Assembly (NCBI RefSeq): GCF_000817775.3
Contig: NZ_JTHE03000019.1
Span: 1-64,000, forward strand
Length of the DNA stretch: 64,000 bases
Origin: Lyngbya confervoides BDU141951
GTDB lineage: Bacteria; Cyanobacteriota; Cyanobacteriia; Thermosynechococcales; Thermosynechococcaceae
Direction of reading: 5' to 3'
Shown here: piece by piece, positions 6,163 to 28,941 of the stretch
Layout: every line of letters begins with the position of its first letter
How positions within the stretch are numbered: position 1 is the first letter of the stretch
Program-made: the position numbers and the translations under genes
Notes under the pieces: model-generated
Told to the model about the DNA's origin: nothing
The model's input: the letters and a program-made list of their open reading frames with translations, nothing else
The model's database searches: none

Positions 6163-6405
6163 ATTATCTTTATTGAGCCTAGAACGGTTCTGAATATCGC
6201 TTCTTTGTCGCAGTGAGATTGCCCGCTAGGACCCGCGCAAGCCGAACTATTCCTCCGGGCAAAAAAGATTGATCGGAGGACCGACTTTTACGGGGCCGTT
6301 ATAGTCTTGGTCCGGCTCAAGACCTCCGCAGAATTATGAGTCCTTGAATCAGCGTAGCCCTTGAGTCAGCAGACTCCTGGTTTATTCGATTCCAATTTTT
6401 TCACA
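6163..6405. other. Non-coding stretch with small repeats
   Basis: No gene seen. An inverted repeat has perfect 7-bp arms TCCTCCG (6251-6257) and CGGAGGA (6274-6280), 16 bp apart, and could help end transcription of the preceding gene. Two imperfect direct copies of CCTTGARTCAGC lie near 6342-6370. Confidence 0.35.
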
Positions 6406-6880: not shown

Positions 6881-6892
6881 TTTGATAGGCCA

Positions 6893-6913
6893 GCCCCCAG
6901 CCTTAATGGGGGC
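6893..6913. terminator. Hairpin between the giant gene and the plus-strand remnant
   Basis: Perfect 7-bp stem GCCCCCA / TGGGGGC with a 7-nt loop, 15 bp beyond the TAG of the giant gene (6929-6931). No T-run follows on either strand, so rho-independent termination is uncertain. Confidence 0.35.
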
Positions 6914-6928
6914 GATCGCACTAGCGAA

Positions 6929-9900
6929 CTACGACTCGCCTGTCCATAGTTTGACACTCTTAGCTTCACGAAAATAGCACTTCCCGATACAAGAGGCACC
7001 ATTCCATAAATCAACATGACCAGTTGCATCGCTCCACGCACCTTGAGTATCAAATATAATAATTCCCTTTTTTCCCAAAAACTTTAGTATCGCTGTTCCC
7101 TCACTAACTATTTCTGGCGCACCATATTTCTTTGTTAAATATTTTTCCATGTCTTTGACTCGAAATATATACCATAGTTTATCAGAACCAGAAATTGTCT
7201 CTCTAGGTATAAATGGAATTGGTGCATCGCTATAGTTGAGTGCGCGGCTAACTCTTAGAGCACATGTATTGTTAAAAGCATCTGGCCAATGTTCATGGTT
7301 ATATAAAATCCGGCCACCAAGCTCTTTATAAACCTCCTCGGGTAGACCAGTTAAATAATGACCTGACATTTTATGGAATGCTGGCACTCCATTAGTTCTA
7401 GAGTTTGAAGAAGCATGTGTAATGGGTTCAGAAAGAGCTATGTCTGCAAGTATAATAATTATACTCATTGCAGCTATTGTCGAAGAAATACTGAAATATC
7501 CACTAGGGTCAATATACCTTACTGGATTTGCACTACCATATAGATATTTATTAAGAGTGATCGGTTTTAGGGAGTCTCCTAACCATTGATCTCTCGAAAT
7601 AAACCTCCCAATATCTTGATTATAGTGTCTAGCCCTGTTATATGAAAGGTCTAATTCGGGTATAAATTGCTCTCCAGAATAGCGATATCGATTCTCTTCA
7701 CTTTCTAAAATATATGAAATTTGGCCGAAAGCATCAAAATTATATTCATTGATATTGTCACCAACTACGTCACTTATAGCTCTTGTACTTCCCAACCCAT
7801 CTACATGATAAATACTCTTATCTCCCCCTCGATTCTGAGAAATTAAGTCATTTCCATATATATAGAAAACTTTAATAATTTCATCCGTTGAATATTCCTC
7901 CAATACTTGAGCATAGGAGCGATTTGCATCAATTAAAAATCGAGTCACCTCTCCATTCACTATCTGACCAACACGAATACCATCCTCGTTATATTCATTA
8001 ACTACATCGATCGCACCATCACCGTCGGTATCAGCTCCCACAAGGCGATTATCTGCATTCCAAGCATAGGTAATGGTAGTTCCATCGGTAGTCTTACTCA
8101 TGGTGTTCCCATTATTGTCATAGGTGTAAGAGGTCACCACGCCATCTAAAGTGGCTCTTAACAGCCGATCGTTATCATCATAGGTATAAATTGTCGTTCC
8201 TTCACCACTATCCACCCGACTCAGACGATTCCCAACCGGATCGTAAACATATTCAATTGTGCGGCTCGCTTCCGTTGCTCCAGGGTCAAAGATTGTTTCT
8301 TTCGTCAGCCGATACAGCAAGTCGTAACTGTACTCCACTCGCCGTCCATCATGCTCATCCACCGCCAGACGATTCCCAGTGGCATCAAGCGTATAGCGGA
8401 AGCTAGCAATCACGCCCTCAGGCCCAGTCGTCTGGATAAAGACCAAACGATTCAGCTCATCATACTCCCGGATTTCCTCAGTCCCGTTCGGAAAGGTCGT
8501 GCGTTCTAAATTCCCCACCCCATTATAGAAATAGGTGGTCACACCGCCCTCAGGATCGGTCACGGTCTTCAATCGATTCTGGGCATCAAAGGTATAGGCC
8601 GTAGTGCCTGACGGAATCTCAACACTGGTACGATTCCCGGCAATATCGTAACTGTAGGCAATCTTGCGACCATCGGGGTCTTCCCGCTCAATCAGGCGAT
8701 TTTGTTCATCGTAGCGGTAGGTCGCTGTCCCCCGATTATCCACCACCGTTTCGCGCAGGCCATTGTCGGTGTAGCTATGGGTTTCGTCGTACTCCTCGCC
8801 CGGTAAATCCTTAACAATCAGACGGTTCCGCTCATCATAGCTGTACTCGGTCACCTCTCCGTTAAAATCAATGCGTCGAATCTGGTTCCCCACTGCATCA
8901 TATTCATAGGTCTCCCGCTCACCTAGCGGCAACACCGTGGCAATTCTTCGACCCAAGCGATCGTATTCGTAGCGTGTGGTATTCCCATTCGCATCCGTCT
9001 GGGTGATTAAATTCCCCTGCTCATCATAGGTATACACCGTCCGCTGATTCAGCGCATCCACCACCGCTGTGAGACGACCCAGGGCATCATACTCATAGCG
9101 AGTCACTACCCCCGCCTGATCAATCCGGGCCACAACTCGACCCGCATCATCGAATTCCGTAGCAGTTCGGGTGCCATCGTCATACTCCTGGGCAATCGGG
9201 CGACCCAGATCGTCATAGATAAAGCGAATGACCTGCCCCAGTGCATCCGTTTGCGTGAGCTGTCGTCCCGCCGCATCATAGGCTGTGGTAAACCGAGGAT
9301 TATCTGTCAAATCTTCAGGGGTTTCATCCGGCAAAATAGTTTCAATTAATCGACCCGCATCATCATAGCGATACTCCGTCCGGTTTCCGCGTGGGTCAAT
9401 ATCCGCCAGTTTACGCCCCGCAGCATCATATTCCATCTGCATCCGAGGATTATCCGCATCCGTGTCAGGTGTTGCATCCGGGTAAATCATTTCCACCTGA
9501 CGGCCCAGGGCATCGTAGACCATTCGGGTGACTCGCCCCAGTTCATCAATTTCTGAAATCACCTGACCCTTGGCATCATAAACCGTCTGGGTGCGAGGAT
9601 TATCCGCATCGATATCGGGTGTCGCATCCGGATAAATCGTGGCGACCATCTGACCGCGATCATCGTAGATGTATCTAGTAGAGCGGCCCAGAGCATCAAT
9701 TTCCTCAACCCGATTCCCCGCTGCATCGTAAATCGTCTCCGTAATATTGCCATCGGCATCAATAGTTTTTATCAGGCGATTTTCCCTGTCATAGACCATT
9801 TTCGTGGCAAGAGATCTGAGCGTGCCGTCAGGAAGAGTTTGCACCGTTCTCTCAGCGATTAGATTGTTGTTACGTGGGTCATAAAAATAATTCGTACTCG

Positions 9901-12900
9901 TACCTACTGCATCCACCTGACTAATAAGATTCCCAACACTGTCATATGCAAAGGTTGTTATACCAGAGGCATCTTCCATTTGAATCAGATTGCCAACCTC
10001 ATCATATTCAAAGGTGAGCAAGCCGCTTGCTTGACCTTCAATTTTAGTCAAGTTGCCATTTCGATCATATGTATTAGAAATCGTTTGGCCCGTAGGATCT
10101 GTAGTAGTCAAAATGTTACCAAACCGATTATAGGTGTATCGTGTCACATTCCCGAGGGCGTCAGTTTCTGTCAGTACATTGCGATCGCCATCATAGGTAA
10201 AGGTCATCGTATTGCCCAACGGATCAGCTTCCGTCAGCATGTTGTTCCTGTCATCGTAGGTGCGAATCGTCACCCCACCCAGGGAATCCACTTCTCTGAG
10301 GACATTCCCGCGCTCATCGTATTCATAGGTTGTGATATTGCCGAGCTGGTCACTGACCTGCTGGATATCATTGTCGGGGTCATAGATCAACTCAACGGGA
10401 TTGCCGTCGGCATCAATCATCCGTACCAATCGACCCTGCTCATCGTATTCCGTGCGAATGCCGCTGCGTCCAAGGGGGTCAATGATCTCATCCAGATAAT
10501 GCAGCCGATCATCGTTGTAATCAAAGCGGGTGGTATTCCCCTCGCGATCGCTCACCGCCACCAAATCACCCAGCGCGTCATACTCGTAGCGGATCCGGTT
10601 CCCCTCGGGATCAATCACCGCCGTTACCCGTCCCTGGGCATCGCGCTCAAACAGGACTTCCACACCCGTCGAACTGGTAATACTGCGATCGCTAAAGGTG
10701 AGCACATTGCCATTGCGATCCGTGATGGTATCCAGATCCCCAGTCCGCGCATTAATGCGATACACGATGCCTTCCTTTGTGGTCAGGTCGTAGTACCCGC
10801 CGAAGCCCACCAGATCGGCTGCAGGATTATAGCGATAGCCACTGGGGCTGTAGTATTCCCCTTGGGCATTGGGTCGGAGCGACACCCCATTGGTTTTCAC
10901 GCTCAAGGTGTTCGTTGAGTCTTTCTCCGATTCAAAAACTGGTTGGTAAAAGGGAGTCGATACATCAATGCCAGAAATTACATCAAAGACAGAAATTTTT
11001 TTAGGCTTGAAAGTAAAGACCTCTCTTTCTCCGCCTGGTAAGGTGATGAAAACCTTATCTCCCTCTCTAAAACCCTTTGACGGAACGTCAATAAACTCTA
11101 GAAGTTCATCTTTCCCGATACCAGTTCGTAGATTCACATTGCGGAACTCCATCCGCCATCCGTAGCCAAAATCATCAGTTTCATTGGCCGTCAAACTGTC
11201 ATAGGTGCGGGTTACCTGAATGGGAATCCCAGTCACCGGAATGGATAGGTCTGTAAACGACAGCCGGAAATTCCCTAACTTCAAATCGCCCTCAATATTC
11301 ACAATGGCGTCAATGCTTGAGGTTCGACCCCCCAGATCCGTCGCGGCAAGGCGCAGCAAGTAACTATCATTTTGCAGAAGCGTGGGGTCAAGCGTCCCCA
11401 AGAGCCCATTATCGACGACGCCAGACCCCCTCGCGATTTCAACAAACTCGCCACCCTCAAGCGGAGCGATCGCCAAGGTATAGGAGAGCAAGTCCGTATC
11501 CTGAACGCTGCCCACAATTCCGGTGGGTGCGGTAATCCCGGTTTCCAAGGGAATATCCCCCACGTAGGAAATCAGATTCACCACTGGGAAAGTGGTATCC
11601 GTCGGATCAATGACCTGCACCGCCTGATTTTGAGTGCCCACATTTCCAGCGGCATCGATCGCCGAAGCCACCAGTTCAATATTGCCAATCGTATTCAAAT
11701 CCAGCGTCGCAATCCCTTGGGCATCCAAGGCGATCGCCTCTCCACCGACCGTCAGAGCTAGCGACTCAACCCCGATATTATCCGTGGCCGACACCTTCAC
11801 CGTGACGCGATCGCCCACATTCACCCGCGATTGATTGACATTAATCGTCACCCGTGGGGCAATGATGTCATTCTGTACCACTAGGTCATAGCGTTGTGAC
11901 GCGATCGCCCCTCGGCCATCCCGCACTTGAATCTCAATAGGATAGGTGCCAATATCGTTGCTATTAGTCGCCCAAGTAATCCGCCCCCGGTTATCAATCA
12001 CCATGCCCTCTGGCGCATTCACGAGGCTGTAGGCGATCGCCTCTCTATCGGGGTCAGAGGCTAGAACATCATAGCGGTAGGTCGTCTCGCTAGTCGCCGT
12101 ACCAATCGGTACAGAGCGAATCACGGGAGCTTGATTAACCTCCGTGACCTGCAACGTATAGTTCTGGATTGAACCCGCTCCGAGTGGGTCATAGGCCGCG
12201 ACCGTAACCTGCACTGAACCGACTTGTATGGGTTGCCAAGTCAGTAACCCAGAGGTTTCATCCACCGTCATGCCCGTCGGGCCATTGACCAGAGAATAGG
12301 TCAGTGGGTCATTATTCGGGTCGATCGCCGTAATTTGATACTGATAACCATTGGCAACATCCGCCCAGAAACCAGGGGTTGAAGTAATCGCTGGAGCCTG
12401 ATTCACTGCCGCTTGGGTCACAACCAAGGTGTAGGTCTGCTGCCCGACTCCCCCCTGAGTATCCTGAACCAACAGCTCTACCACATGGGAACCTAATTGC
12501 CCTGTATTGGGTGTCCAGAGCAGTTCGCCAGTGTTTTCATCAAGCGACATCCCCGCAGGATGTTTGCCTAAGCGATACTTTAAGCGATCGCCCTCTGGAT
12601 CTTTCGCTTCAACCTGATACCGATAGGGTTGATTGATACCAATTTGAGTCGGCGGCACAGACGTAATGCGGGGAGGCGTATTAGTACCGCGAACTTCTAG
12701 GGTGTAGGTTTGGGAGGCACTCGCACCATAGGCATCTAGGACATTGATCTCAACTCGATGACTCCCCACTTGAATAAAGGAAGGTTGCCAGCTCACTACC
12801 CCCGATGCAAGGTCTATAATCATTCCCTCAGGGGCTTTCCGAAGTTCCCAAAAGAGAACATCACCATCTGGATCCGTGGCTAACGCTTGGTATTGGTAAG

Positions 12901-15900
12901 GCCGGGCCACATTGGTAAGCAGTGGTGCTTCTGAGGTAATTTCCGGTGCAAAATTAACCACCTGATTTCGCACATCCAACGTATAGGTTTGCGTATCAAC
13001 GCCACCTTGCCCATCATTGACCGTGATGGAAATCGGATAAGTTCCAATTTGGTTACGATTAGGCTCCCATGACACAAGTCCAGACGCATCGATCGTCAAG
13101 CTTTCTGGGCCTTCTACAATTTCATAGGCAATAGCATCCCCATCGAGATCCTGAACTTTGATCTGATAGAGATACGGTGTATTCACCCGCGTCGCCACCC
13201 TCGGCTGAGAGGTAATCACAGGAGCTTGATTCGGTTGTGCTTCAATCACCGATAGACTCAGTACCTGCCGGGATTGGGCTCCTTTATCATCGGTAACCAG
13301 TAGCCCAACATCATATTGCCCTAGCTGTTGAGCGCTAGGAGTCCAAGTCAACAGTCCTGAACTGGAATCAATAGTTAGGCCGGTCGGTGCGCCAGGTGCC
13401 AAAGAATAGATAACCGGATCTCCCTCTGGATCAATCGCCAAGGACTGATATCTAAACTCTTTACCGACTTGGGCCTGATTGTTGACCAAAATCGAGGTAA
13501 AGCTCGCGGCACTGTTGATGGGCAAAAGTGTCAAATCTAGTTCTTGAAGCGCTTGTCCTCCCCGGCCATCGCTCACCCTCAGCAAAGTCTTAAAGCTGAC
13601 TTGCTCCGGTACGGAGGCACTACGGGCAGGGCCAAGTCGCTCGCGAGTTGCTTCTAGATCAGCGTAGTATTGCTCAACTTGAGCTTGTGTAGGAATCCAA
13701 GTGACAATCCCTGTCTCCGTATCTACAGTCATACCCTCGGGGGGCAAAAAGAGATCATAGCGGAGCCGATCGCCATCGGGGTCTGTTGCGCGTGGACGAT
13801 AGATCACAGTTTCGCCCGCAGAAATAGCTCTCGACTCAAAATTAGTTTGGAAAATTGGGTTTAAATTTTCTGGTGAGCGTTGACCCGCAAGACCAAAGTA
13901 ATAGGTGAAATATTCCCCATCCAGCGTAATCGGAGCAATGGAAGGACTAATTTCAGGGGCAGTTTGAATCAACCCACTCGGAATGACAGGCCGAACTGTA
14001 TAGGTCTCAGGAGTTAAATCCTCAAATGAAAATAGATAGGTTGCTCCATCTACGGGTCTGCCTGCCTCATCAAGCTGTGTAACCTGGAAAGGTTCATTTG
14101 TATCCAATACCCCATTATTATTCAAATCTAGGTAGACACCAATATCCTCTTTGAGTGGTTCGATCGCATACCTAGGATCAACCCCAGCAAACACTTTAAT
14201 CAGCGGCTCAATCTCTACAATTTGTTCTGCATTCGGATCAATCTTCTCTAAAGTAGATAAAGTTGAGGCTTCCCCGATGGCAAAGGCAGACAGATTGACA
14301 CCAGCTTCATTTAACGCCTCGACGACTCGTATTCCCTCTTCAGGATTCCGTAGAAAAGACGTATCATAGCCATCTGACATAAAGATGACATTTGGGTCAC
14401 CGGGTAATACTTCCGTCAAGGATCGGATTGATTCTAAGGTTCGTGTAAAGTTGTTGGATCCAGAGGGTTCATAGACTTCCAAAATTTCTCGAATATCTGG
14501 AATTCCATTATTATCCTGATCCGCGAGAGCAGTTGTATAGGGTTGCAAGCCGGGTGTAACCGGATCCATATCCTGCAATACGGTCAAATCATTATGGGGA
14601 ATTAAGCCAATGTTGACCTTATTTCCCAGTCCTTGACCAATCAGTGCATCAAGGAGAGTGAAAGAGGCCGCCACTTGTGCATCAAGGACAGTTTTAATCT
14701 CAGGATAGGCTTGACTGCCTCGGAATGGGGCTTGAGTACTTCCAGAAACGTCTAGGGCCAATACAAGAGAGGGATTATCCCCTTTGAAGAACTTCGTATC
14801 CAGAATTCCATTGCCATTGAGATCATCAAACACAATACCTTGAACTTTTCCAAGTCGGTTAAAGACCTCAACCTGAAATTCCTGGGTGTCAAACCCACCC
14901 CGCCCATCATAGGTTTGAACCACAAAATCAACGGAAGTTCCGGGAACGACTCCGTCCTCTGGGAACCAGAGCAATTCGCCAGAATTACTATCTACGAAAG
15001 ACCCAAGAGGGCCATTAACCAAACGATAGCGAAGTACATCTTGATCGGGATCAATCGCTGCAATTTGATAACGATACACATCTTCGTTGAGCCCAAAAAC
15101 GGTTTTAGGGTCACTCAGAATAGTTGGATTATTGTTGTTCGGGTCTGGGCCAACCTGAATTGTGTAAACCTGAATGTCACTCGCACCCTGGGGGTCTTCA
15201 ACTGATAGCTCAACGGCATATTCTGCTACTAAGGAGGCTTCACCCGATGCACCACCTCCAAGCCCAGGGGTCACAATTTCAGCTGGAATTGGGTCATAAC
15301 CAAAGACACTAAACTCATAACTGTAGGGTTCGGGAACGCCACCCCCAAGAACTAAGAGATAATCCCCTGAGTATTCCAGGGTCACCTCAAAGTCGCGATT
15401 AAAGCTGTAGTTGCGAACATCAGAATGTATCCGTTCATTAAATGGATCGTATAAAGCCCAGGTGCCTGCGTCATTGTTAATATCAAAAAACAGGGTCTGT
15501 CCTGCCTCTGCTTGAAGTTTGTAGTAAGTGACTTCTTGCCCTGACGCTAACGAACCTTGAACCGGAATTCCAAAGTCAAGCGAGGTACCACTCGATAGCT
15601 CAAGCAACTGAAAGTTATAGTCTCTTGCATCAGCCGCATCATTTGAGATGACGAAGTGATACGTTCCGTCTTGAGTTAAATCGAAGGGGCCAGCATCAAA
15701 GTTCCCTAAATTCACGCTGTTTAAGAGTTCTTCACCATTGGGAGCAACAAGTTGCGCCCTTATATTCGCGCCAGTAATTCCGTTGAAATAGACGGGAAGC
15801 CCTGCTAGACCTTCAAAGGTGTAAACTTTACTGCTCAGCGCTGAGAGCGTACCCGCAGTGGTTCCGCCAATCTCTAGATAATTAACTCCTGGTGATCGCA

Positions 15901-21900: not shown

Positions 21901-24900
21901 TCTGGATGGAGAGACCGTTAAACTCCCGCAGCAGATCTAAATAGAGCTTTTGGCCCACCGCCCCGCTAAAGACAAACTCCTCGCGATCGCCCGGTAAACT
22001 GATTTGACTCAACACCGTATCCCCAATGGCGAGAGTTGGCCCCGGTGTCCAGTCCACCTGTCCTGTGATTGGATCAATCTGAAATCCTTCCGGCCCACGA
22101 ATCACGGAGTAGATCAAGGCATCTTGATCCGGGTCAATCGCGTCCGCATCATACTGATAGGGTTGATTAATTTGGGCATCGACCACTGGAATAGAGGTGA
22201 AAAGGGGCGGACGATTGGGCGGTGGCGCAATCACATTGAGCGTGTAGCTTTGCTCCGTGAGACCCCCTCGGCCATCATTGACCACCACAGTCACCCGATG
22301 ACTGGCAATATTGTCGGTCGTGGTCTGCCACTCAATCTGCCCCGTGACGGCATCAATCACCATGCCCTCAGGGGCGACCTGGAGTGCATAGGTCAGGGGG
22401 TCGAGATCCGGATCAACCGCATTGACATCGTAGCGGTAGGGCAATCCCCCGATGACCTCCAACCCTGGCTCAGACTCAATCACCGGCACTTGATTTCCTT
22501 GAGCCAAAATCTCGACTTCGTAGGTAAATTGCTCACCCGTGGGATTTAAGAAGGTGATCGTGCGAGCCGCGCTCATTTCACCTGGATTCAGTTTTTCAGC
22601 TTCAAGCTGATCGGTGATATCAAAATAAGGAAAACCCTCTGGCGTAAAGCCATCCGCATTCGCCACTTGAACCGCTGGATCACTAAGACCACGAATCACC
22701 AAGACAAGCGGCCCACTCCATCCCTCGTTGCCAATATTCTCTAAGGAGATGTCCGTTGATAAAACTTGCGTCTCTTGATTAAACGACGTCGCAAAATAGT
22801 TGACCTGGGCACTATTGGCCACAGACCCTAATTGACGGAAGTTAATCTCGCGATCGCTCCGTCGGAAGTCCACCGATGGAACGGCTGACCCGTTGCCCAG
22901 CCCTGGTTCTGCGACAAAGGTAAAGTCACGGATTAAAACCGTCGTTTCAGTATCGTCATCATTATTAACCAGCCGGAAAATAAGGCGAGCATTGGTACCA
23001 GGCTCAATACCAGACACATCTACCTGTACCGTCTGATTATCCTGGGTCACACCCGGTGCAAGCTGGGGTAGCTCATCTTCCGTTACGTTGAAAAACGCAT
23101 CTTTCCCGCTGCCGACAGTTTGAACTAAGGAACGACCCGATTCATCTACCAGGGCGACTTCAAAGGCATCATTAATAAAATCAGGATCGGTGGGGTCAAA
23201 GTTGAGGTTGGCAAACCGAACTACTAAGCGAGACGGTTCAACGGGAATCACAACCGATTCCTCGTAAACCACCTCAAAAAATTGTTCCTCAACGAGGGTT
23301 ACACCCGTGATTTCCTCAACCACGACAGACAGGGTCGCCGTTTGTGTTTGCGCCCCGCCTTCACCGCTATTCCCCAAGTCATTGGCGATGAGGGTAAGGG
23401 TATCCGTCTCCGAAAAGCCTGGATTGGAACGATAGGTCAGACTCGCCAAACTCTGATTAATAGCCGCCAAATTGCCCGTAAAGACCAGGGTCGGACTGGC
23501 TTCACCCGTGCCTGACTCAAAGGAGAGTCCGTCCCGCTGCGGCAAATGAAGAATGCCGTTGACCGCTGATACCGTCACCTGAATCTCATTCTCTCCGGCA
23601 TCAATGTCCGTTAGTTGCACTCCCCGAATCACCGTCTCCGTTTCTGGGTCAGCCGATTGGAATCCGGGCACTGTCCATTGGGGGGCGTCATTAACAGGCG
23701 TAATCTCCAGCGTAATTTGCTGTTGCGCGATCCCCCCCTGACCATCCCTCACTTCATAGGCAAAAATTCCCGCCGATCCATTGGCATTCGCCACTGGCAC
23801 AAAGGTCAGTTGCGTCAAGTCTTCGATAGTTAGGGCTTGGTCAAGGGCCAAGGGTGATCCATTCAGCCAGACCGCACCCCGCTGGATATCGGGAACGCTC
23901 AAGATCCGCAGACTCAACTCATCTCCATCTAGATCCTGGGGAGGCGCAATAGCCAAGGGGGTTGCCGGGCTATCTTCTAAGACAGTGAGGGTCTTATTGG
24001 CCTCCACGGTAGGTGGGGTATTGGCCCCCATCACGACAATCTCAATCGTGTCTTCAACAATCTGCTCCCCGCCAGATCCCGTCTGACCCAAATCGCTGAC
24101 CACAATCGTCAAAATATCATTGCCGACCAAATCAGGACGGCTCTGATAGCTTAGACTCGCCAGGGCTTGATTCATGGCAATCAATGGCCCTGTCAGAGTC
24201 AGACTAGCACTATTGGCATCCCCTTCAACCGTCACGAAACTGGTATCGATCGATAATGTTCCCCCTGGAGCCGATAGCCTCACTTGGATCGGATTGTTCC
24301 CTGCATCAATGTCGGCAACCCCAAGATTAGGAATTGATAGTGGTTGATTCCGATTGGTCTCTAATACACTCGGCGCAGTAATGACCGGAGCATCATTGAC
24401 CGGAGATATTTCAATCGTGATACTTTGCGATGCAATCCCCCCTTGACCATCTTCCACGGTGTAGCGGAATCGCCCTGCTGAACCAAAGGCATTGGCCTCC
24501 GGCACAAACTGTAAACCGGGCAGATCGGAGACCCCTAAGGCATCGCCTAACCCTACGACCGTTCCATCGGCTTTCTGGATCACCCCTTGGGTCGGCAACT
24601 CTTCCAGGATGACGCTCAAGGAATCACCATCTCGATCTTGAGGGAGGGGGATTCCCAGATCATTGACTCCACTGTCTTCCTGCACCATTAGGACGGTATC
24701 TGGGCCGACCTCGGGCGCAATATTAATGCTGCGTACCTGAATTTCAAGGATCAGGCGATCGCTTAAGGGGCCACCGGTTCCGGTATTGCCCTGATCATCT
24801 ACCACCACCTCAACCCTCGCCAATCCCTCAAAATTGACGGGACTGAGATAGGTCAGGCCAGCTAAGGCGGTATTGAGCGATGGGAGCGTCCCAGTTAAAA

Positions 24901-27900
24901 CTAAAGCTGTTGCGGTGGACTCAGGGGCTAACACCACGCCGGTGGTTGTCGGGAGGCTCAGTTCCCCCTGCTCCACTGTCACCTCAACCCGTATTTCTCC
25001 TTCCTCGGCATCAATATCGCTGATGCTAACCGGAATTTCTAGGGGGCTAGCCTCATCCACGGAGAGGTTCTCTGGCCCACTCAAGATGGGGGCATCATTT
25101 TGAGCAACAACCGTTATATCAACCGCTGCACTGGCTTCGCCGACTGACCCCTCTCCTTGATTACCCAAGTCATTCACTTGGATATTGAGCACATCCCCTC
25201 CAGCATAGTTCTCCCCAGGGGTATACACCACAGCCCCCAGCGCTTGATTCAATGCCACTAAGGTGCCCTGGAAGACCAGTTGGCGATCGCCCGTGCCGCT
25301 GCCTGCCGTGAACGTCAGTCCCTCTAGGGCCGCGAGGGAAACAGTCCCTTGGTCCACCGCAAGACGCACCTCTAACACGCCATCTCCAGCATCTACATCG
25401 GAGACCTGAATCGCAGGGAGGGTTAGCGTTTCATCTTCACCCACCGATTGACCCACCGGCACCGTCAGCACCGGTGCATCATTGACTGGGGTCACCACCA
25501 AAGCAACAGATTGGGTGGCTGTCAGTCCTTCCCCATTCGCTCCAGACTGGTCATTTACCCATATCTCTAGACGGTCGGTGCCATTAAAATTAAGCTTGGG
25601 TTGATAGCTCAGCGTTGCGATCGCCTGATTAATCGCGGCAAGCGTTCCTGTAAACTCAAGGACAGAATTGTTTGAACCGGTTCCTGGCGCAACCTGAAGT
25701 CCGCTGGTATCGGTGAGGTTCAATTGTCCTTGACCCACCGAAATCTTCACCCACAGATCTGTTGCACCGGCATCGGGGTCGGCAAACGTGATGCCAGATA
25801 TTTGTAATTCGTTATCCTCCGGGGTCGTCAGGGCTTCCGGTGCAGAAATGTCTGGCGGCTGGAAAATAGGTAAGCGTTCAAAGGTTCGCTCAAAGCTACT
25901 GCGATTTCCGGCAGCATCCACCGCTTCGGCGCTAAATTCATTAAGACCCAACGCGAGGTTCAGTTCAAAGAAGGTAAAGGCACCATTTTCATCAGCGGTT
26001 ACCGTCTTACCCCCAGGACTCAAACTCACCTGGGCGAAAGGTTCAGTTGTGCCGGTGAGCGTCACCGTCTCCAGGGTGGTTTTCTGATCCCCTAACGGAT
26101 CACTATCTGATGCCGGCAGCAAATCAAAACTGGGTACCGCAACCGTGGTGTCTAACACAAAGGAAAGGGCATCAATCACCGGCTCAGCGGGCAGATCTAA
26201 CTCCACTTTCACCACGACATCGGTAAAATCTTTGTCCCCTCCGTTCGTTAAATCCTCGAACCGAAACAAATTCGGTTCACTGGGATCCACCTGCATGTGA
26301 TCAAACCCGTCTGGATTCGCAGCTTGAAAAGAGAAGAAAGCCTTTGGTTTCTGTTTTAACTGGTTCTTCGGATTCTTCTCTAAAAACCGCTCCGTAGTGT
26401 CATTTTGGACAATGTAGTATCCCACATAGCGACCTGCAGGGAGATCTAGTTCCTGAACCGCGCCTTCCCCTAGCCCACTTTTGAAAATAATTTGGCGGCT
26501 AGGATGGGATAGCGCGGCGGCGGCATACCCGCGATCCCCTGGCTTGAGATCACCAATCCGCCCCTCAGCATCATCAACGATAAACAATCCCAGCTCATTG
26601 TTGAAGCCTGCATCTCGCTCAACCCAGCTAAACCGAGCCTTAACGGTTTCGCCTTCACCCGCGGGTAACTGAAAAACTTCAGCCTCGAGATCTGCAAAGC
26701 CGTTAAAGGAATGGGGATTCTCTTTGTGATAGCTGTGGTTACCGAAAATATCGGTGGCAATAAAGTGAATCGTATAGGGGCCATCCGGTAGTGTCCCCCC
26801 ATTCATATCCTCCAGCACGGCTCGATTCAGCTCAAAACTTCCATCGGGCTGCAGGTAAGTGGAAATATCCACATAATCAGAAAGCGGCTGGTCGCCGATC
26901 GCTGCTTTAAACTCCTTGATCGGACTGCTGTCTCGAACCTGACCCCGAATCGTCGGATCGTAGGTGAGCCGATCCTCATTCGTTCCCACCGGCGCAGTAT
27001 CGTTGGCTAGTCTGGCTTCAATGATTGGCGGATCGTTCTCAGACAAGACCCAATCACACAGGTCATTGATTTCTGCCCCACTCAAAGCCCGGTCATACAC
27101 TCGAACATCCGCAATCACCCCTGCCAAGCCCCGGTTTCCGCCACCAAATCCTTTCTTGTCGTGGAATCGAGTGCTTTGATAGGCGCGACCAATGCCAATA
27201 CCATCATGATGGAAACGTAGCGCAGTCCCGACCCCCTCTCCAAACTGTTGCCCATCCAGGTATGCCGAAAACGCCCCTGCCTGCGGGTGTTTTCCTGGAT
27301 CAGCATCCAACACTAACACCACATGATGCCACTGATTCGCCTCAACCTGATTCGTTGACAGAAAAGTGCCAGACCAGTTTGCGTGTTTCCGATCCCACCC
27401 CCCCGCGTAAAGACGGCCTTCATCCAGGTAGATATTCAGCCCTCCCTGGGGTCCACCTTCTTCATAAATGACTTGCTTCTTACCCTTTGTGGGGTCATCC
27501 GCCTTAAACCAAACCGCGACGGTTCGCTTAGCCTGAAGACTCGTCTTCGGCTGGCCTTTAATGGCGATCAGATCATTGATGCCGTCAAAACGAACCCCTC
27601 CCCCTAGGACGGACTCATCCAGTGAAACAAATGACGCACCATGTTTGAGAAATCCTTTATTGTTGCCCCCCAACGGCGCACTATCTTTGGCAATTTTTCC
27701 GCCAGGCTCGTCCAAATTCAAGTGGATCAACAAGCCCGACTGCGAGGTTTCAAGAGAGGATTGATCCCATTGAAATTTCTCCGATCTCCCTCCCAGTTGA
27801 AAACCCTCTCCAAAACCAGTTAGGGGATCTACCGCGGAAGACGTTTGGGGAACTGAATAATCGGTGGGTGAGAATAATCGGCGTTCCTCCGCCCCCCCTC

Positions 27901-28126
27901 TTCCCTCAGCATAAAATTCGTTTAACCTCAGGGCATCCCCTGGGGAGGACTCGATGCCATAGGTGAGATCTGAAGACGCTGGAGCGGTTCGACGTCCACC
28001 CATACCTTCAATCAGATCTAACAGGCCATTCGCTGAGTCATCCTCTAACAAAGGAATTAAAGCGCCTGGCAACAGTCCAGAGCTTGAAATCAGGGAGCCA
28101 CCTAGGAAATCCTTGTTGGAAGTCAT
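6929..28126 (-). CDS. Giant (about 7,065-residue) RHS/YD-repeat protein with Tae4-like amidase C-terminus
   Basis: One open frame of about 21 kb. Approximate order from the chosen ATG (28124-28126): LamG lectin-like domain 130-362; Ig-like; DUF4114 480-643; seven cadherin-like modules 766-1610; spacer to 1876; He_PIG modules; about 22 pre-peptidase-C-like modules 2036-4280; von Willebrand A domain about 4450-4650; seven He_PIG modules 4750-5420; Ig-like; RHS entry domain; about forty YD repeats 5830-6720; RHS core 6812-6880; hydrophobic segment; Tae4-like tip 6940-7065. No N-terminal signal peptide is visible, so export route is unknown. A TTG at 28213 would add 29 residues but lacks family character; neither start has a good ribosome site. 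RHS shells encase a C-terminal toxin; Tae4 amidases cut peptidoglycan cross-links. A contact-dependent antibacterial weapon is the inference. The last kilobase is visibly AT-richer than the rest, as expected for an exchanged toxin tip. Confidence 0.9.
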   Translation of the reverse strand: MTSNKDFLGGSLISSSGLLPGALIPLLEDDSANGLLDLIEGMGGRRTAPASSDLTYGIESSPGDALRLNEFYAEGRGGAEERRLFSPTDYSVPQTSSAVDPLTGFGEGFQLGGRSEKFQWDQSSLETSQSGLLIHLNLDEPGGKIAKDSAPLGGNNKGFLKHGASFVSLDESVLGGGVRFDGINDLIAIKGQPKTSLQAKRTVAVWFKADDPTKGKKQVIYEEGGPQGGLNIYLDEGRLYAGGWDRKHANWSGTFLSTNQVEANQWHHVVLVLDADPGKHPQAGAFSAYLDGQQFGEGVGTALRFHHDGIGIGRAYQSTRFHDKKGFGGGNRGLAGVIADVRVYDRALSGAEINDLCDWVLSENDPPIIEARLANDTAPVGTNEDRLTYDPTIRGQVRDSSPIKEFKAAIGDQPLSDYVDISTYLQPDGSFELNRAVLEDMNGGTLPDGPYTIHFIATDIFGNHSYHKENPHSFNGFADLEAEVFQLPAGEGETVKARFSWVERDAGFNNELGLFIVDDAEGRIGDLKPGDRGYAAAALSHPSRQIIFKSGLGEGAVQELDLPAGRYVGYYIVQNDTTERFLEKNPKNQLKQKPKAFFSFQAANPDGFDHMQVDPSEPNLFRFEDLTNGGDKDFTDVVVKVELDLPAEPVIDALSFVLDTTVAVPSFDLLPASDSDPLGDQKTTLETVTLTGTTEPFAQVSLSPGGKTVTADENGAFTFFELNLALGLNEFSAEAVDAAGNRSSFERTFERLPIFQPPDISAPEALTTPEDNELQISGITFADPDAGATDLWVKISVGQGQLNLTDTSGLQVAPGTGSNNSVLEFTGTLAAINQAIATLSYQPKLNFNGTDRLEIWVNDQSGANGEGLTATQSVALVVTPVNDAPVLTVPVGQSVGEDETLTLPAIQVSDVDAGDGVLEVRLAVDQGTVSLAALEGLTFTAGSGTGDRQLVFQGTLVALNQALGAVVYTPGENYAGGDVLNIQVNDLGNQGEGSVGEASAAVDITVVAQNDAPILSGPENLSVDEASPLEIPVSISDIDAEEGEIRVEVTVEQGELSLPTTTGVVLAPESTATALVLTGTLPSLNTALAGLTYLSPVNFEGLARVEVVVDDQGNTGTGGPLSDRLILEIQVRSINIAPEVGPDTVLMVQEDSGVNDLGIPLPQDRDGDSLSVILEELPTQGVIQKADGTVVGLGDALGVSDLPGLQFVPEANAFGSAGRFRYTVEDGQGGIASQSITIEISPVNDAPVITAPSVLETNRNQPLSIPNLGVADIDAGNNPIQVRLSAPGGTLSIDTSFVTVEGDANSASLTLTGPLIAMNQALASLSYQSRPDLVGNDILTIVVSDLGQTGSGGEQIVEDTIEIVVMGANTPPTVEANKTLTVLEDSPATPLAIAPPQDLDGDELSLRILSVPDIQRGAVWLNGSPLALDQALTIEDLTQLTFVPVANANGSAGIFAYEVRDGQGGIAQQQITLEITPVNDAPQWTVPGFQSADPETETVIRGVQLTDIDAGENEIQVTVSAVNGILHLPQRDGLSFESGTGEASPTLVFTGNLAAINQSLASLTYRSNPGFSETDTLTLIANDLGNSGEGGAQTQTATLSVVVEEITGVTLVEEQFFEVVYEESVVIPVEPSRLVVRFANLNFDPTDPDFINDAFEVALVDESGRSLVQTVGSGKDAFFNVTEDELPQLAPGVTQDNQTVQVDVSGIEPGTNARLIFRLVNNDDDTETTVLIRDFTFVAEPGLGNGSAVPSVDFRRSDREINFRQLGSVANSAQVNYFATSFNQETQVLSTDISLENIGNEGWSGPLVLVIRGLSDPAVQVANADGFTPEGFPYFDITDQLEAEKLNPGEMSAARTITFLNPTGEQFTYEVEILAQGNQVPVIESEPGLEVIGGLPYRYDVNAVDPDLDPLTYALQVAPEGMVIDAVTGQIEWQTTTDNIASHRVTVVVNDGRGGLTEQSYTLNVIAPPPNRPPLFTSIPVVDAQINQPYQYDADAIDPDQDALIYSVIRGPEGFQIDPITGQVDWTPGPTLAIGDTVLSQISLPGDREEFVFSGAVGQKLYLDLLREFNGLSIQIFAPSGKLVNVRDGLFTLTENGNYTVVVDGNGAQTGQYGFSLIDPSLLPEADLDQAVVDRLSPGTDDDLFRFTGFTGQKIFLDQLSNSGFFANWVLFGTGNQIVAQDFSMNDLELYLPTDGEYILAVRGRGTFGELLEYSLEIVTPDETSAPMILGSNLDPQVISGTISEPGEEDFYTFAGVVGQRVYLDRLNTINDGNIRVRLFGPSDRQYFDRAFWLDTEAGPVTLLEEGEYRIQIDGNGDRVGDYAFSLRDLGLATPAELDTTYSGTLSLDDASSHLYQFQANEGQRIFIDSQSTGAVWFSTTVAVYDSGNREVARNSAGQAIEWVIDKTDTYTLAISNRDQQSIDYSFTLVTPEISSQPLAFNTPTFGEIREKGEQDRFTFEANQGQQILLDILQSSNHRVSLISPSGQELVSAVEARDEGGFNLNFVYLPEAGTYEVFLDGFGGGTGSYGFQILDVSNAEPIVPGTVVNASLDPGRAIRVYQFDGNEGDRVYLDRQDGSNFVYTRLWGPDSNLLADTTNSFNGNSDREVVLGATGTYFVAIQGEENTPVEFSLQLVISQDSSSTINLDETVSGSISVAGEQDTYQFVGSQGQTLVLDALQGTTSFSFSVKNSSGNFISQGNLGNSSSALWLPEDGVYALTVDGFDATTGNYQFAVRSQSLDVQVGDRLSDTLSAKETRLYTFEGVEGTTLSLSSLVGSNTGRWTLYAPDGSQILAAALNQSSSTPLQMNGEYLLTVQNDAETETTYQLEILDISPALVPSLGLNQVYEGSLPVRESTTISLAANAGQLIYLDGLFSSGTRVDLTDPDGQRVGGLSGFGSGSDLVLLTKTGDYSLRVESFFSSDPVTYQIQVLDLESVASDMALNTPIAQALETNETKVFQFSGTLGQRIFLDGLDTSDVGVTARLIDAFGREIASSNSSANFGIQTLRYTGTHYLLIDSANSQPTTAQFRLLDVDDVAIATTVDTLITGDFGVSQRETNFYAFNGQAGQKLYIDRFVGGTNIGNRSGNKYALYTPDGQRILTEDLIRDGELTLPSTGQYVLELSGNGDSNNDYEIQLVTPEDLTETISLNTVINGAISEAGQTNTYRFVGAENQQILLDALSALNSQFQLLATLYSPSGKQIANLDFANDNGSFNQDPGLITLHENGLYELVIDAAGEFNSTYSFQILDVAASDLVALDTTLAGSFALSNEEAQVYRFNGLADQRVYFDLKQGSISDRYALYSPAGNELFSQLLDRDFDIVLPATGEYVLTILGRGGSVDYNIDLVTPDYVLEDYVIGETLQSSIDEPGEVDFYRFRGDPGQIISLDGLYSSNSGIYIALRAPTTVEAYEEARILGQEFFFGNEPQKPLVVVLDESGEFIVEVNPRGDQTSSYQFRILDFAAAQSIAIGETISSSFGVEGFDDSVYRFSVLDQTRLFVDGTVDPVTGFSSGYYLYDSSGNLLSEGSLGDIDLSETVLDAGDYYLLIRGQGSPNGSYTFKLLTPEWQTQAYELGTSVFSTFGVPGEQDWYTFEGEVGQKIYIDQLVGTSPYLIPSLVSPSGQVVTGFADGFTRDKSEIYTLEESGTYTFKFDARFDVTGDYGFRILDLNQADSLAFETPLPANFGTSNRETQIYKVSVEAGDRYLLNSTGGFDVRLFDADGNAVDLIGTTSFSGVRRIQWDEGGDYYVVLGGQGDSSIDASLTISDISVPPNALELGTKQTGDIGQNGEVQVYRFEAIADQRVFLNVLSGLDQFSFQLLSPSGRQVYTAQTSPVPLRLDESGTYSLVIDGTSFSFGSVREFQLGEFSFQLTNLSEEASPLSLGGANTGTLNPGEANQFFTFTGQKGSILSFDLAAVQWLDANWVLFDPGDRAIVSPAQDNPDFQVVLPSSGVYTLAILNSADLPTSYAFQVTDITPPPVTAQGLNTLYSGNFAGGDPEIYTISASAGTRVIFDGQTTAFNSVQVRLRNPDGTLLLDNQSPRNDSQPLLLQQTGDYTLEVYGGAGDYAFQILDFPSNLRSPGVNYLEIGGTTAGTLSALSSKVYTFEGLAGLPVYFNGITGANIRAQLVAPNGEELLNSVNLGNFDAGPFDLTQDGTYHFVISNDAADARDYNFQLLELSSGTSLDFGIPVQGSLASGQEVTYYKLQAEAGQTLFFDINNDAGTWALYDPFNERIHSDVRNYSFNRDFEVTLEYSGDYLLVLGGGVPEPYSYEFSVFGYDPIPAEIVTPGLGGGASGEASLVAEYAVELSVEDPQGASDIQVYTIQVGPDPNNNNPTILSDPKTVFGLNEDVYRYQIAAIDPDQDVLRYRLVNGPLGSFVDSNSGELLWFPEDGVVPGTSVDFVVQTYDGRGGFDTQEFQVEVFNRLGKVQGIVFDDLNGNGILDTKFFKGDNPSLVLALDVSGSTQAPFRGSQAYPEIKTVLDAQVAASFTLLDALIGQGLGNKVNIGLIPHNDLTVLQDMDPVTPGLQPYTTALADQDNNGIPDIREILEVYEPSGSNNFTRTLESIRSLTEVLPGDPNVIFMSDGYDTSFLRNPEEGIRVVEALNEAGVNLSAFAIGEASTLSTLEKIDPNAEQIVEIEPLIKVFAGVDPRYAIEPLKEDIGVYLDLNNNGVLDTNEPFQVTQLDEAGRPVDGATYLFSFEDLTPETYTVRPVIPSGLIQTAPEISPSIAPITLDGEYFTYYFGLAGQRSPENLNPIFQTNFESRAISAGETVIYRPRATDPDGDRLRYDLFLPPEGMTVDTETGIVTWIPTQAQVEQYYADLEATRERLGPARSASVPEQVSFKTLLRVSDGRGGQALQELDLTLLPINSAASFTSILVNNQAQVGKEFRYQSLAIDPEGDPVIYSLAPGAPTGLTIDSSSGLLTWTPSAQQLGQYDVGLLVTDDKGAQSRQVLSLSVIEAQPNQAPVITSQPRVATRVNTPYLYQIKVQDLDGDAIAYEIVEGPESLTIDASGLVSWEPNRNQIGTYPISITVNDGQGGVDTQTYTLDVRNQVVNFAPEITSEAPLLTNVARPYQYQALATDPDGDVLFWELRKAPEGMIIDLASGVVSWQPSFIQVGSHRVEINVLDAYGASASQTYTLEVRGTNTPPRITSVPPTQIGINQPYRYQVEAKDPEGDRLKYRLGKHPAGMSLDENTGELLWTPNTGQLGSHVVELLVQDTQGGVGQQTYTLVVTQAAVNQAPAITSTPGFWADVANGYQYQITAIDPNNDPLTYSLVNGPTGMTVDETSGLLTWQPIQVGSVQVTVAAYDPLGAGSIQNYTLQVTEVNQAPVIRSVPIGTATSETTYRYDVLASDPDREAIAYSLVNAPEGMVIDNRGRITWATNSNDIGTYPIEIQVRDGRGAIASQRYDLVVQNDIIAPRVTINVNQSRVNVGDRVTVKVSATDNIGVESLALTVGGEAIALDAQGIATLDLNTIGNIELVASAIDAAGNVGTQNQAVQVIDPTDTTFPVVNLISYVGDIPLETGITAPTGIVGSVQDTDLLSYTLAIAPLEGGEFVEIARGSGVVDNGLLGTLDPTLLQNDSYLLRLAATDLGGRTSSIDAIVNIEGDLKLGNFRLSFTDLSIPVTGIPIQVTRTYDSLTANETDDFGYGWRMEFRNVNLRTGIGKDELLEFIDVPSKGFREGDKVFITLPGGEREVFTFKPKKISVFDVISGIDVSTPFYQPVFESEKDSTNTLSVKTNGVSLRPNAQGEYYSPSGYRYNPAADLVGFGGYYDLTTKEGIVYRINARTGDLDTITDRNGNVLTFSDRSITSSTGVEVLFERDAQGRVTAVIDPEGNRIRYEYDALGDLVAVSDREGNTTRFDYNDDRLHYLDEIIDPLGRSGIRTEYDEQGRLVRMIDADGNPVELIYDPDNDIQQVSDQLGNITTYEYDERGNVLREVDSLGGVTIRTYDDRNNMLTEADPLGNTMTFTYDGDRNVLTETDALGNVTRYTYNRFGNILTTTDPTGQTISNTYDRNGNLTKIEGQASGLLTFEYDEVGNLIQMEDASGITTFAYDSVGNLISQVDAVGTSTNYFYDPRNNNLIAERTVQTLPDGTLRSLATKMVYDRENRLIKTIDADGNITETIYDAAGNRVEEIDALGRSTRYIYDDRGQMVATIYPDATPDIDADNPRTQTVYDAKGQVISEIDELGRVTRMVYDALGRQVEMIYPDATPDTDADNPRMQMEYDAAGRKLADIDPRGNRTEYRYDDAGRLIETILPDETPEDLTDNPRFTTAYDAAGRQLTQTDALGQVIRFIYDDLGRPIAQEYDDGTRTATEFDDAGRVVARIDQAGVVTRYEYDALGRLTAVVDALNQRTVYTYDEQGNLITQTDANGNTTRYEYDRLGRRIATVLPLGERETYEYDAVGNQIRRIDFNGEVTEYSYDERNRLIVKDLPGEEYDETHSYTDNGLRETVVDNRGTATYRYDEQNRLIEREDPDGRKIAYSYDIAGNRTSVEIPSGTTAYTFDAQNRLKTVTDPEGGVTTYFYNGVGNLERTTFPNGTEEIREYDELNRLVFIQTTGPEGVIASFRYTLDATGNRLAVDEHDGRRVEYSYDLLYRLTKETIFDPGATEASRTIEYVYDPVGNRLSRVDSGEGTTIYTYDDNDRLLRATLDGVVTSYTYDNNGNTMSKTTDGTTITYAWNADNRLVGADTDGDGAIDVVNEYNEDGIRVGQIVNGEVTRFLIDANRSYAQVLEEYSTDEIIKVFYIYGNDLISQNRGGDKSIYHVDGLGSTRAISDVVGDNINEYNFDAFGQISYILESEENRYRYSGEQFIPELDLSYNRARHYNQDIGRFISRDQWLGDSLKPITLNKYLYGSANPVRYIDPSGYFSISSTIAAMSIIIILADIALSEPITHASSNSRTNGVPAFHKMSGHYLTGLPEEVYKELGGRILYNHEHWPDAFNNTCALRVSRALNYSDAPIPFIPRETISGSDKLWYIFRVKDMEKYLTKKYGAPEIVSEGTAILKFLGKKGIIIFDTQGAWSDATGHVDLWNGASCIGKCYFREAKSVKLWTGES
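6932..7700 (-). other. RHS core and Tae4-like amidase tip
   Basis: The RHS core reads LSYNRARHYNQDIGRFISRD, then YGSANPVRYIDPSGY. A hydrophobic stretch follows (STIAAMSIIIILADIAL), then a tip of about 125 residues with the Tae4 signature: NTCALRVSRALNYS with the likely nucleophile Cys (codon 7262-7264), a GIIIF strand, and ATGHVDLWNG with the likely catalytic His (codon 7016-7018), then two Cys nine and thirteen residues after that His. Tae4 proteins are gamma-D-glutamyl-meso-diaminopimelate amidases delivered by type VI secretion. Homology is judged by eye. Confidence 0.75.
7960..11290 (-). repeat. RHS entry domain and YD-repeat shell of the giant protein
   Basis: About 10640-11290 encodes the RHS entry (GNFRLSFTDLSIPVTGIP, then VTRTYDS and GYGWRMEF). 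From 10640 to 7960 run about forty 20-21-residue YD repeats of type GxxxxYxYDxxGRLxxxxDxxG. Three successive units at about 9320-9640 carry an extended P-D-x-T-P-D-x-x-x-D-N-P-R insertion at a spacing of about 50 residues. In known RHS/Tc proteins such repeats fold into a hollow shell around the toxin. Confidence 0.85.
11870..13870 (-). repeat. Seven He_PIG (Ig-like) modules before the RHS shell
   Basis: Seven units of about 88-100 residues with the pattern PxITSxP, PYxYQxxAxDPDGDxxxY, PxGMxxDxxTGxxxWxP, VxDxxGGxxxQxYxLxV. They separate the vWA domain from a last Ig-like pair (11290-11860) and the RHS entry. Confidence 0.8.
13880..14850 (-). other. von Willebrand A domain set in a split Sdr-like B domain
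   Basis: Begins GIVFDDLNGNGILDTKFF, a calcium-binding SdrD-B/dockerin-like loop, then a vWA fold with MIDAS motif ALDVSGSTQ, the downstream SNNFTRTLESI segment, and VIFMSDGYDTS. The B-domain pattern resumes after the vWA fold with DIGVYLDLNNNGVLDTNEPF. vWA domains use a metal ion to bind partner proteins and may mediate adhesion to target cells. Confidence 0.75.
15290..22020 (-). repeat. About 22 tandem pre-peptidase-C-like modules in the giant protein
   Basis: About 22 diverged copies, roughly 100 residues each, cover about 6.7 kb. Each module has a strand ending in [YIF][LFI]D after a GQ (for example VGQRVYLDRL, LGQRIFLDGL, AGQKLYIDRF), then a PSG/PDG turn, a GxYxLxVxG strand and a closing YxFxLxD strand. 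This is the bacterial pre-peptidase C-terminal (PPC) beta-sandwich pattern. Copies differ at DNA level, so the array is old or held apart by selection. It splits a He_PIG module (see findings). Confidence 0.8.
23300..25830 (-). repeat. Seven tandem cadherin-like modules in the giant protein
   Basis: Seven modules of about 110-125 residues, each closing with a VNDAP- or NxAP/PP-type linker. Five carry a DxDAG/DIDAEEG calcium-site-like motif and a NQALASLSY-type helix; two carry a DxDGDxLS and DGQGGIA pattern. These rigid modules usually form a calcium-stiffened stalk. Confidence 0.8.
26200..27740 (-). other. LamG and DUF4114 domains at the N-terminus of the giant protein
   Basis: 27040-27740 encodes a concanavalin-like LamG fold: GVRFDGINDLIAI, then RTVAVWFKADD, NQWHHVVLVLD and GVIADVRVYDRALSGAEI are the standard LamG strands. 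About 26200-26690 encodes a DUF4114 domain: NELGLFIVDDAEG, GDRGYAAAALS, FFSFQAANPDGFDHM and the closing FEDLTNGGDKDFTDVVVKV. Both are typical of large secreted cyanobacterial surface proteins and may bind glycans or calcium. Confidence 0.8.
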
Positions 28127-28242
28127 ATTTGTTTTTGATTGCGGGGGGAAGGGGGAGTTAAGGCGCGAAACGTCTGATGACCTTGAGGAGCAATACAGAG
28201 CCCTGAGGCACAACCTGAGTCTTATAACTCAATTTTTGGCTC

Positions 28243-28941
28243 CTAAGCGGGCATAGAGACCATAGAATCCGCCTCTGCGGATAAAGGAAAGCGACTCAGC
28301 GTGTCTAAATATTTCTGCAAAATTTGTTGCGACTCCTGCAGGACTTGCCGGATGCCGGCTAAGGTGGCGTCTGGGGCGTTGGTGTCCAGATCACGCGCAT
28401 AGCTCCCCGAGAACAGGATGACAAACTCATCCTCGCCCTCAGGCCGAGCCAATTTCGCCTCGTTTATCGACAAATTTAGGCGTCCATCTGTTTGAGGGTA
28501 GCTGAATTGAACAGCAACCTGAATCGATCCTTCAGGACTCTCGCTCCAGGCCCCTGACCGTAAAATCTGCTGGGTCAGAAAACGATGAGCCGCTTCCTGA
28601 CTGGGAAAAGGCGCGTGACTCCTGATATTAACTCCAATCCCTTGATACTCCAGTTTTGGAAGTTTCTCCAGGTAACGCTCCGCAACAGCCGCCACTTGTG
28701 GGGCTTGAGGCTCCTTTAGATTAATCGCCTCAATAAAATCAATCCGATTCGGTTGAGCAACCAGCTGGATACCATTTTTGTAAATAATTTGTGTGACGCG
28801 GTTGCTATACACAGGAGACCGGGACAATTCCCATTCCGCAGGAATGACGTCTCCATACTTTAGAAAATCGGGGTTCAAGGCATTGGGATTTAAACCCTTG
28901 ACCGCCAAGGAAATTCCAAATTCTTGCAAAACCAGGCTCAT
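28243..28941 (-). CDS. Conserved cyanobacterial hypothetical protein upstream of the giant gene
   Basis: 232 residues, soluble, without signal peptide or membrane segment. Start region LVLQEFGISLAVKGLNPNAL leads to a stretch on a C-terminal-helix scaffold ending RFPLSAEADSMVSMPA. Family and function not recognised; a resemblance to scattered cyanobacterial proteins of the TIGR04255 kind was considered but cannot be shown. It is transcribed in the same direction as the giant toxin gene, with 116 bp between its stop and the chosen ATG of that gene, so the two are probably one operon. Position suggests a partner role (chaperone, export adaptor or displaced immunity protein), but nothing in the sequence proves this. 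Confidence 0.6.
   Translation of the reverse strand: MSLVLQEFGISLAVKGLNPNALNPDFLKYGDVIPAEWELSRSPVYSNRVTQIIYKNGIQLVAQPNRIDFIEAINLKEPQAPQVAAVAERYLEKLPKLEYQGIGVNIRSHAPFPSQEAAHRFLTQQILRSGAWSESPEGSIQVAVQFSYPQTDGRLNLSINEAKLARPEGEDEFVILFSGSYARDLDTNAPDATLAGIRQVLQESQQILQKYLDTLSRFPLSAEADSMVSMPA

What the first reader, a model, noticed from the sequence alone, without database searches (positions are those of the whole stretch)
6929..28126. 7,000-residue RHS toxin-like protein with a Tae4 peptidoglycan amidase at its tip
Seen: one uninterrupted frame with LamG, DUF4114, cadherin-like, PPC-like, vWA, He_PIG and RHS parts, ending in a tip with NTCALRVSRALNYS and ATGHVDLWNG. Known: RHS proteins of bacteria are normally 1,400-2,000 residues; Tae4 amidases are normally small free-standing type VI effectors. 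Inference: a cyanobacterial giant polymorphic toxin in which a cell-wall amidase is carried on an exceptionally long adhesive stalk. The stalk may reach across a sheath or capsule.
Basis: partly seen in the sequence, partly recalled or inferred. Interest (0 to 1): 0.9.

Follow-up and report, generated by a model that had tools for sequence, protein, structure and literature searches.

The report
Giant cyanobacterial toxin with cell-wall-cutting tip
A cyanobacterium encodes a 7,065-residue surface toxin whose last 110 residues are a cell-wall-cutting enzyme otherwise found as a small injected effector; relatives carry other toxins on similar giant proteins, but here the usual antidote gene is missing.

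Summary
One uninterrupted frame runs from 28126 to 6929 (-), 7,065 aa from its ATG, with LamG, DUF4114, cadherin-like, PPC and He_PIG domains, an RHS core, and a C-terminal Tae4 domain. The tip is Tae4 by profile (E=9e-25), nearest solved sequences and predicted fold (all solved Tae4 on top). It keeps Cys6984, His7066 and a third Asp (Asp7068) in the alternative position used by the Serratia and Agrobacterium enzymes. The last ~1 kb has GC ~0.36 against ~0.52 in the body and downstream. Identity to the closest relative collapses over the same stretch, as expected if the tip was swapped in.

Giant RHS proteins recur in other cyanobacteria (3,200-8,200 aa in close homologues, up to 9,657 aa in distant ones). 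They carry different toxin tips, several followed directly by known immunity families. So this is a polymorphic toxin of a known kind, not unique in length. Two features stand out. A T6SS-type amidase sits on a non-T6SS giant with no Tai4 and no T6SS sheath gene in the genome. An uncharacterised 232-aa gene directly upstream recurs beside giant genes, twice next to PPIase/cNMP-ABC (type I secretion) genes, hinting at an export route. Function, delivery and self-protection are untested.

The parts
6929..28126 (-). Giant RHS protein gene, 7,065 aa from ATG (7,094 from an in-frame TTG at 28213)
   Evidence: no stops
27065..27535 (-). LamG (Laminin_G_3) lectin-like domain
   Evidence: E 2.4e-18
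26198..26443 (-). DUF4114
   Evidence: E 9.5e-17
23264..26146 (-). Big_13, cadherin-like, Big_9 and tandem-95 repeats (approximate limits)
22004..22516 (-). He_PIG pair (approximate limits)
15254..22096 (-). Array of about 20 PPC-like units (approximate)
   Evidence: PPC E 5e-12; motif count 22
14114..14767 (-). vWA-like segment (LDVSGST), below Pfam cut-off
   Evidence: E 0.004
11774..14056 (-). He_PIG / Ig-like array (approximate limits)
11144..11284 (-). DUF6531, entry to the RHS part
   Evidence: E 2.9e-7
7736..11146 (-). RHS/YD repeats
   Evidence: E 5e-147, 24 stretches
7499..7735 (-). RHS-associated core domain TIGR03696, ending in DPSG
   Evidence: E 1.9e-18
7418..7498 (-). Hydrophobic linker between core and tip (SISSTIAAMSIIIILADIALS)
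   Evidence: sequence
6950..7276 (-). Tae4 peptidoglycan amidase tip; Cys6984 (7262-7264), His7066 (7016-7018), Asp7068 (7010-7012), conserved Cys pair 7075/7079
6929..7990 (-). Low-GC block covering the end of the RHS core and the tip (inferred swapped-in segment)
28243..28941 (-). 232-aa partner gene, conserved beside giant RHS/surface-protein genes in other cyanobacteria

Best explanation
It is a contact-type polymorphic toxin. The ~5,600-residue N-terminal part (LamG, DUF4114, cadherin-like, PPC, He_PIG) is a surface stalk/adhesin. The RHS part forms a cage that holds the C-terminal toxin. The tip is a Tae4-type D-Glu/mDAP amidase that would cut the peptidoglycan of a touched neighbour. 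The tip and the last part of the core were acquired together by recombination, replacing an earlier tip. Shown by sequence: architecture, Tae4 homology and fold with an intact catalytic set, the swapped-in block, relatives with different tips and immunity genes, absence of Tai4, conserved upstream partner. Inferred: surface display, export by the cNMP-ABC/PPIase type I-like exporter, cage formation, entry into the target periplasm, killing. The producer may be protected because the enzyme stays caged until delivery.
For: Tae4 profile, nearest PDB Tae4 sequences, AlphaFold model pLDDT 89 matching all solved Tae4 (TM 0.68-0.80). In the alignment Asp sits either at His+2 or in the CxDxC loop, never both; PMC6277958 reports that the Serratia and Agrobacterium enzymes use the His+2 Asp. 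GC break at ~7990 and at the stop codon and identity to the G170 relative falling from ~80% to 23% over the same stretch. Homologous RHS proteins in other cyanobacteria carry M35 protease, HINT+AHH nuclease, NucA/B DNase, HNH-like and ColE3-type RNase tips, with Imm11, SUKH-like, DUF4241 and DUF416 genes next to several of them. Partner gene next to giants, and twice next to PPIase plus cNMP-ABC genes, once with HlyD; the window's genome has a 60%-identical ABC.
Against: No immunity gene: no Tai4 in the genome or window, no same-strand ORF of 70 aa or more for 1.7 kb after the stop. No secretion signal was identified, and no experiment links giant RHS proteins to the ABC exporter. The canonical RHS self-cleavage motif is only partly present (DPSG kept; first DPxG reads DQWLG). 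The partner gene also occurs away from giants in many genomes.
Confidence: 0.72

Rival explanations
1. The tip is a captured, now idle or non-lethal passenger: the amidase came in without its immunity gene and is tolerated because it is never released or is inactive.
For: No Tai4 or other immunity gene; the low-GC block ends at the stop codon and is followed by a remnant of an opposite-strand gene.
Against: The catalytic Cys, His and Asp and the Cys pair are all kept and the 21-kb frame is open; a dead domain would be expected to decay.
Confidence: 0.13
2. A domesticated cell-wall enzyme: the giant protein uses the amidase on the producer's own wall or sheath (cell separation, export through the wall) rather than as a weapon.
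For: No immunity gene; located near a large glycan-synthesis and ABC export cluster.
Against: Tae4 occurs in only 1 of 386 sampled cyanobacterial genomes, the block looks recently acquired, and homologous scaffolds carry nuclease and protease toxins.
Confidence: 0.1
3. It is delivered by a contractile injection system, like T6SS Rhs effectors.
For: Tae4 is a T6SS effector family; the genome has one Phage_sheath_1 hit (E 2e-8), as Synechococcus elongatus does.
Against: No TssC/VipB sheath gene; no PAAR domain in the Pfam scans; a 7,065-aa multidomain protein is implausible as a needle cargo.
Confidence: 0.04
4. The frame is an assembly artefact joining separate genes.
For: The genome is a 122-contig draft.
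Against: Large parts of the frame align in order to single frames in independent genomes.
Confidence: 0.01

Closest known systems
Tae4 amidase effectors (EcTae4 4HFK, StTae4 4J30, SmTae4 4BI3, AtTae4 6IJF)
   Same: Fold, Cys-His-Asp set, Cys pair; 43-45% identity over the aligned part to EcTae4/StTae4
   Different: Those are freestanding T6SS effectors with a Tai4 gene next to them; here the domain is fused to an RHS giant without Tai4 or T6SS sheath gene. The third Asp sits as in SmTae4/AtTae4 although the sequence is closer to EcTae4.
RHS polymorphic toxins (PMC3482391), including Tox-NLPC/P60 tips and N-terminal laminin-G
   Same: RHS core plus exchangeable C-terminal toxin; papain-like wall hydrolase tips and LamG parts are described in other phyla
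   Different: Giant stalk, cyanobacterial host, Tae4 clade, no immunity gene
Giant RHS proteins of other cyanobacteria (G300, G376, G354, G172, G170, G237, G167, G042)
   Same: Homologous RHS part; shared stalk modules; some with the same partner gene
   Different: Different toxin tips; several with a known immunity family after the stop codon
Kiritimatiellae RHS protein with Tae4 tip (L018)
   Same: RHS repeats followed by Tae4 at the C-terminus
   Different: At least 1,850 aa (cut by contig end); Asp in the loop position; a 285-aa ORF with a lipoprotein-like N-terminus follows the stop

Membership tests
Tae4 amidase domain | Pfam PF14113 above curated cut-off | tested here: met
   87.6 bits against 27
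Tae4 amidase domain | Catalytic Cys, His and third Asp | tested here: met
   C6984, H7066, D7068; Asp in the SmTae4/AtTae4 position
Tae4 amidase domain | Papain-like Tae4 fold | tested here: met
   Predicted model matches 4hfk, 4j30, 4bi3, 6ijf
Tae4 amidase domain | Cuts the D-Glu/mDAP bond | not testable with these tools
   needs enzyme assay
T6SS Tae4-Tai4 effector-immunity pair | Adjacent Tai4 immunity gene | tested here: not met
   held-out Tai4 sequences were found by the same kind of profile
T6SS Tae4-Tai4 effector-immunity pair | T6SS in the genome | tested here: not met
   no VipB/TssC sheath; other components not searched
RHS polymorphic toxin | YD repeats plus RHS-associated core before the tip | tested here: met
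RHS polymorphic toxin | Variable tips on homologous scaffolds | tested here: met
RHS polymorphic toxin | Tip acquired by C-terminal displacement | tested here: met
   GC and identity breaks
RHS polymorphic toxin | Immunity gene directly downstream | tested here: not met
   relatives have one
RHS polymorphic toxin | Self-cleavage motif DPxG...DPxG | tested here: inconclusive
   second DPSG present; first reads DQWLG (motif)
Type I (ABC) secretion substrate | Genetic link to ABC, HlyD and PPIase genes | tested here: inconclusive
   Linked in G376 (PPIase, ABC, HlyD) and G167 (PPIase, start of cNMP-ABC) but not at the window locus; orthologous ABC elsewhere in the genome

The most novel reading that the evidence does not exclude
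Cyanobacteria possess their own class of giant RHS contact weapons, exported by a type I-like cNMP-ABC exporter with a dedicated 232-aa partner protein, outside the known delivery systems for RHS toxins; in this genome it carries a wall amidase that needs no immunity protein because the enzyme stays caged and acts only outside the cell.
Probability: 0.3. Interest if true: 0.78.

Novelty: new variant of a known kind. Interest (0 to 1): 0.58.

Why it matters
Interbacterial protein weapons of cyanobacteria are little studied; the literature searches made here found no paper on giant cyanobacterial RHS toxins. A class of 3,000-9,000-residue RHS proteins with interchangeable toxin tips would give these organisms a contact weapon, and the conserved partner gene and ABC exporter make the delivery question testable. 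A Tae4 tip without Tai4 is a natural test of whether the RHS cage alone protects a producer.

Tried and rejected
The secreted DUF2059-like gene at 5647-6162(+) was considered as the missing immunity gene and rejected as a dedicated one: it shows no similarity to a 23-sequence Tai4 profile (hhalign probability 0.2%), and its only homologue in 29 sampled relatives lies in a genome where neither this RHS type nor Tae4 was found. Six-frame search for a decayed Tai4: nothing. Loss of the catalytic Asp (loop reads CIGKC) was suspected, then rejected: Asp7068 at His+2 takes its place. Orphan RHS tips elsewhere in the genome: none. A shared N-terminal export motif among giants: only a weak likeness in a few of them. 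Fold of the 232-aa partner: model pLDDT 82 but no convincing PDB match (TM at most 0.37). The second copy of the partner gene in this genome is not beside a giant gene. A plasmid search with the tip found only two Escherichia records, one annotated as Tae4.

Full report
Observation. The frame 6929..28213(-) has no internal stop; the likely start is the ATG at 28126, giving 7,065 aa. Residue numbers below count from the TTG at 28213. Pfam finds LamG, DUF4114, Big_13, Cadherin_4/5, Big_9, PPC, He_PIG, DUF6531, 24 RHS stretches and Tae4, and NCBIfam finds the RHS-associated core. The vWA part is below cut-off. Blocks of the frame align in order to single frames of 8,052 and 8,169 aa in two other genomes (residues ~2000-6925), so an assembly join is unlikely.

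The tip. The last 110 residues score 87.6 bits against Tae4 (cut-off 27). The nearest solved sequences are EcTae4 and StTae4. An AlphaFold model built from 25 Tae4 sequences has pLDDT 89 and matches every solved Tae4 first (TM 0.68-0.80). Cys6984 and His7066 align with the catalytic pair. The Asp of EcTae4/StTae4, inside CxDxC, is Gly here. PMC6277958 reports that SmTae4 and AtTae4 use an Asp two residues after the His instead, and the tip has exactly that (GHVDLW, Asp7068). Across the alignment, sequences with Thr at His+2 have Asp in the loop wherever the loop is aligned, and those with Asp at His+2 have none there. The catalytic set therefore looks complete. PMC3695027 reports that Cys44, His126 and Asp137 variants of StTae4 lose toxicity.

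Origin of the tip. GC falls from about 0.52 to 0.34-0.39 between ~7990 and the stop codon and returns at once downstream. Identity to the closest relative, G170, is 75-83% in most of the late core, then 58%, 43% and 23% from residue 6780 on. This fits a swapped-in segment comprising the end of the core and the tip. Tae4 was found in 1 of 386 sampled cyanobacterial genomes, this one. Among 42 related loci in a species-wide genome collection nearly all are short frames, most with a Tai4-like gene directly after; the exception is an RHS protein of a Kiritimatiellae bacterium. That scan used two degenerate peptide patterns, so more distant Tae4 were missed.

Relatives. The RHS entry region finds 25 of 386 cyanobacterial genomes, with frames of 3,655, 4,534, 5,222, 6,566, 6,961, 8,052 and 8,169 aa among the close homologues and up to 9,657 aa among distant ones. 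Some of the distant ones have RHS in mid-protein rather than at a tip. Tips of the close homologues differ: M35-type metallopeptidase, HINT with and without AHH nuclease, HNH-like, NucA/B DNase, ColE3-like RNase, and several without a Pfam hit. Genes just downstream include Imm11, DUF4241, DUF416 and weak SUKH hits. This is the signature of polymorphic toxins (PMC3482391). That survey already lists NlpC/P60 tips with RHS and N-terminal laminin-G in other phyla, so the present protein is a variant of a known kind.

Missing immunity. No Tai4 occurs in the genome. A profile from 23 Tai4 sequences, which recovers held-out Tai4, finds nothing in the window. After the stop codon comes a remnant-like opposite-strand frame (6608-6877, +) and then a convergent DUF2059-like gene that is not tied to RHS. 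PMC11461821 reasons that for Tse15 the immunity protein is needed only against sister cells because the cocoon shields the toxin. The same could hold here; it is inference.

Possible export route. The 232-aa gene directly upstream (28243-28941) has no Pfam or NCBIfam hit. Homologues lie directly upstream of giant genes in G376, G167, G042, G024 and G300, and near the 3' side of giants in G354 and G300. The family occurs in 63 of 386 genomes, also away from giants. In G376 it stands beside PPIase, cNMP-C39-like-ABC and HlyD genes, and in G167 beside a PPIase and the start of a cNMP protein. The window's genome has a 60%-identical ABC with a neighbouring frame resembling the PPIase (the latter judged by eye). 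A TssC sheath gene is absent; one phage-sheath-like gene is present. Type I-like export is the best lead but rests on neighbourhood alone.

Verdict. Real, well supported as a giant RHS toxin with a complete Tae4 tip; new variant of a known kind. The surprise lies in the combination (T6SS-type amidase, no T6SS sheath gene, no Tai4) and in the cyanobacterial giant RHS class with its partner gene.

Noticed in passing
28243-28941(-); L078:9946-10683, L080:17037-17771, L086:13985-14725, L093:12049-12786, L081:2785-3573, L082:9470-10171, L075:2957-3667: Uncharacterised ~240-aa protein family recurring beside giant RHS/surface-protein genes of cyanobacteria; also next to cNMP-ABC/PPIase-like genes in L134 and L137.
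   Followed up: partly
47593-50133(-): Glycosyltransferase fused to an EAL domain and a response-regulator receiver domain in one 846-aa protein, an unusual combination.
   Followed up: no
30042-50133: Large glycan gene cluster: many glycosyltransferases, a Wzt-like ABC ATPase and ABC-2 permease, FkbM methyltransferase, and a G8/CEMIP beta-helix protein (39614-42799).
   Followed up: no
6608-6877(+): Remnant-like C-terminal piece of an opposite-strand gene directly behind the giant gene's stop codon.
   Followed up: partly
L018:3-5552: RHS protein of a Kiritimatiellae bacterium with a Tae4 tip, followed by a 285-aa ORF with a lipoprotein-like N-terminus, a possible different immunity protein.
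   Followed up: partly
alignment A3: In Tae4 the third catalytic Asp is either at His+2 or in the CxDxC loop, never both among the sequences aligned.
   Followed up: yes
G000:C75:21717-22184: Phage-sheath-like gene (825-aa frame) in the same genome, possibly a contractile injection system.
   Followed up: no
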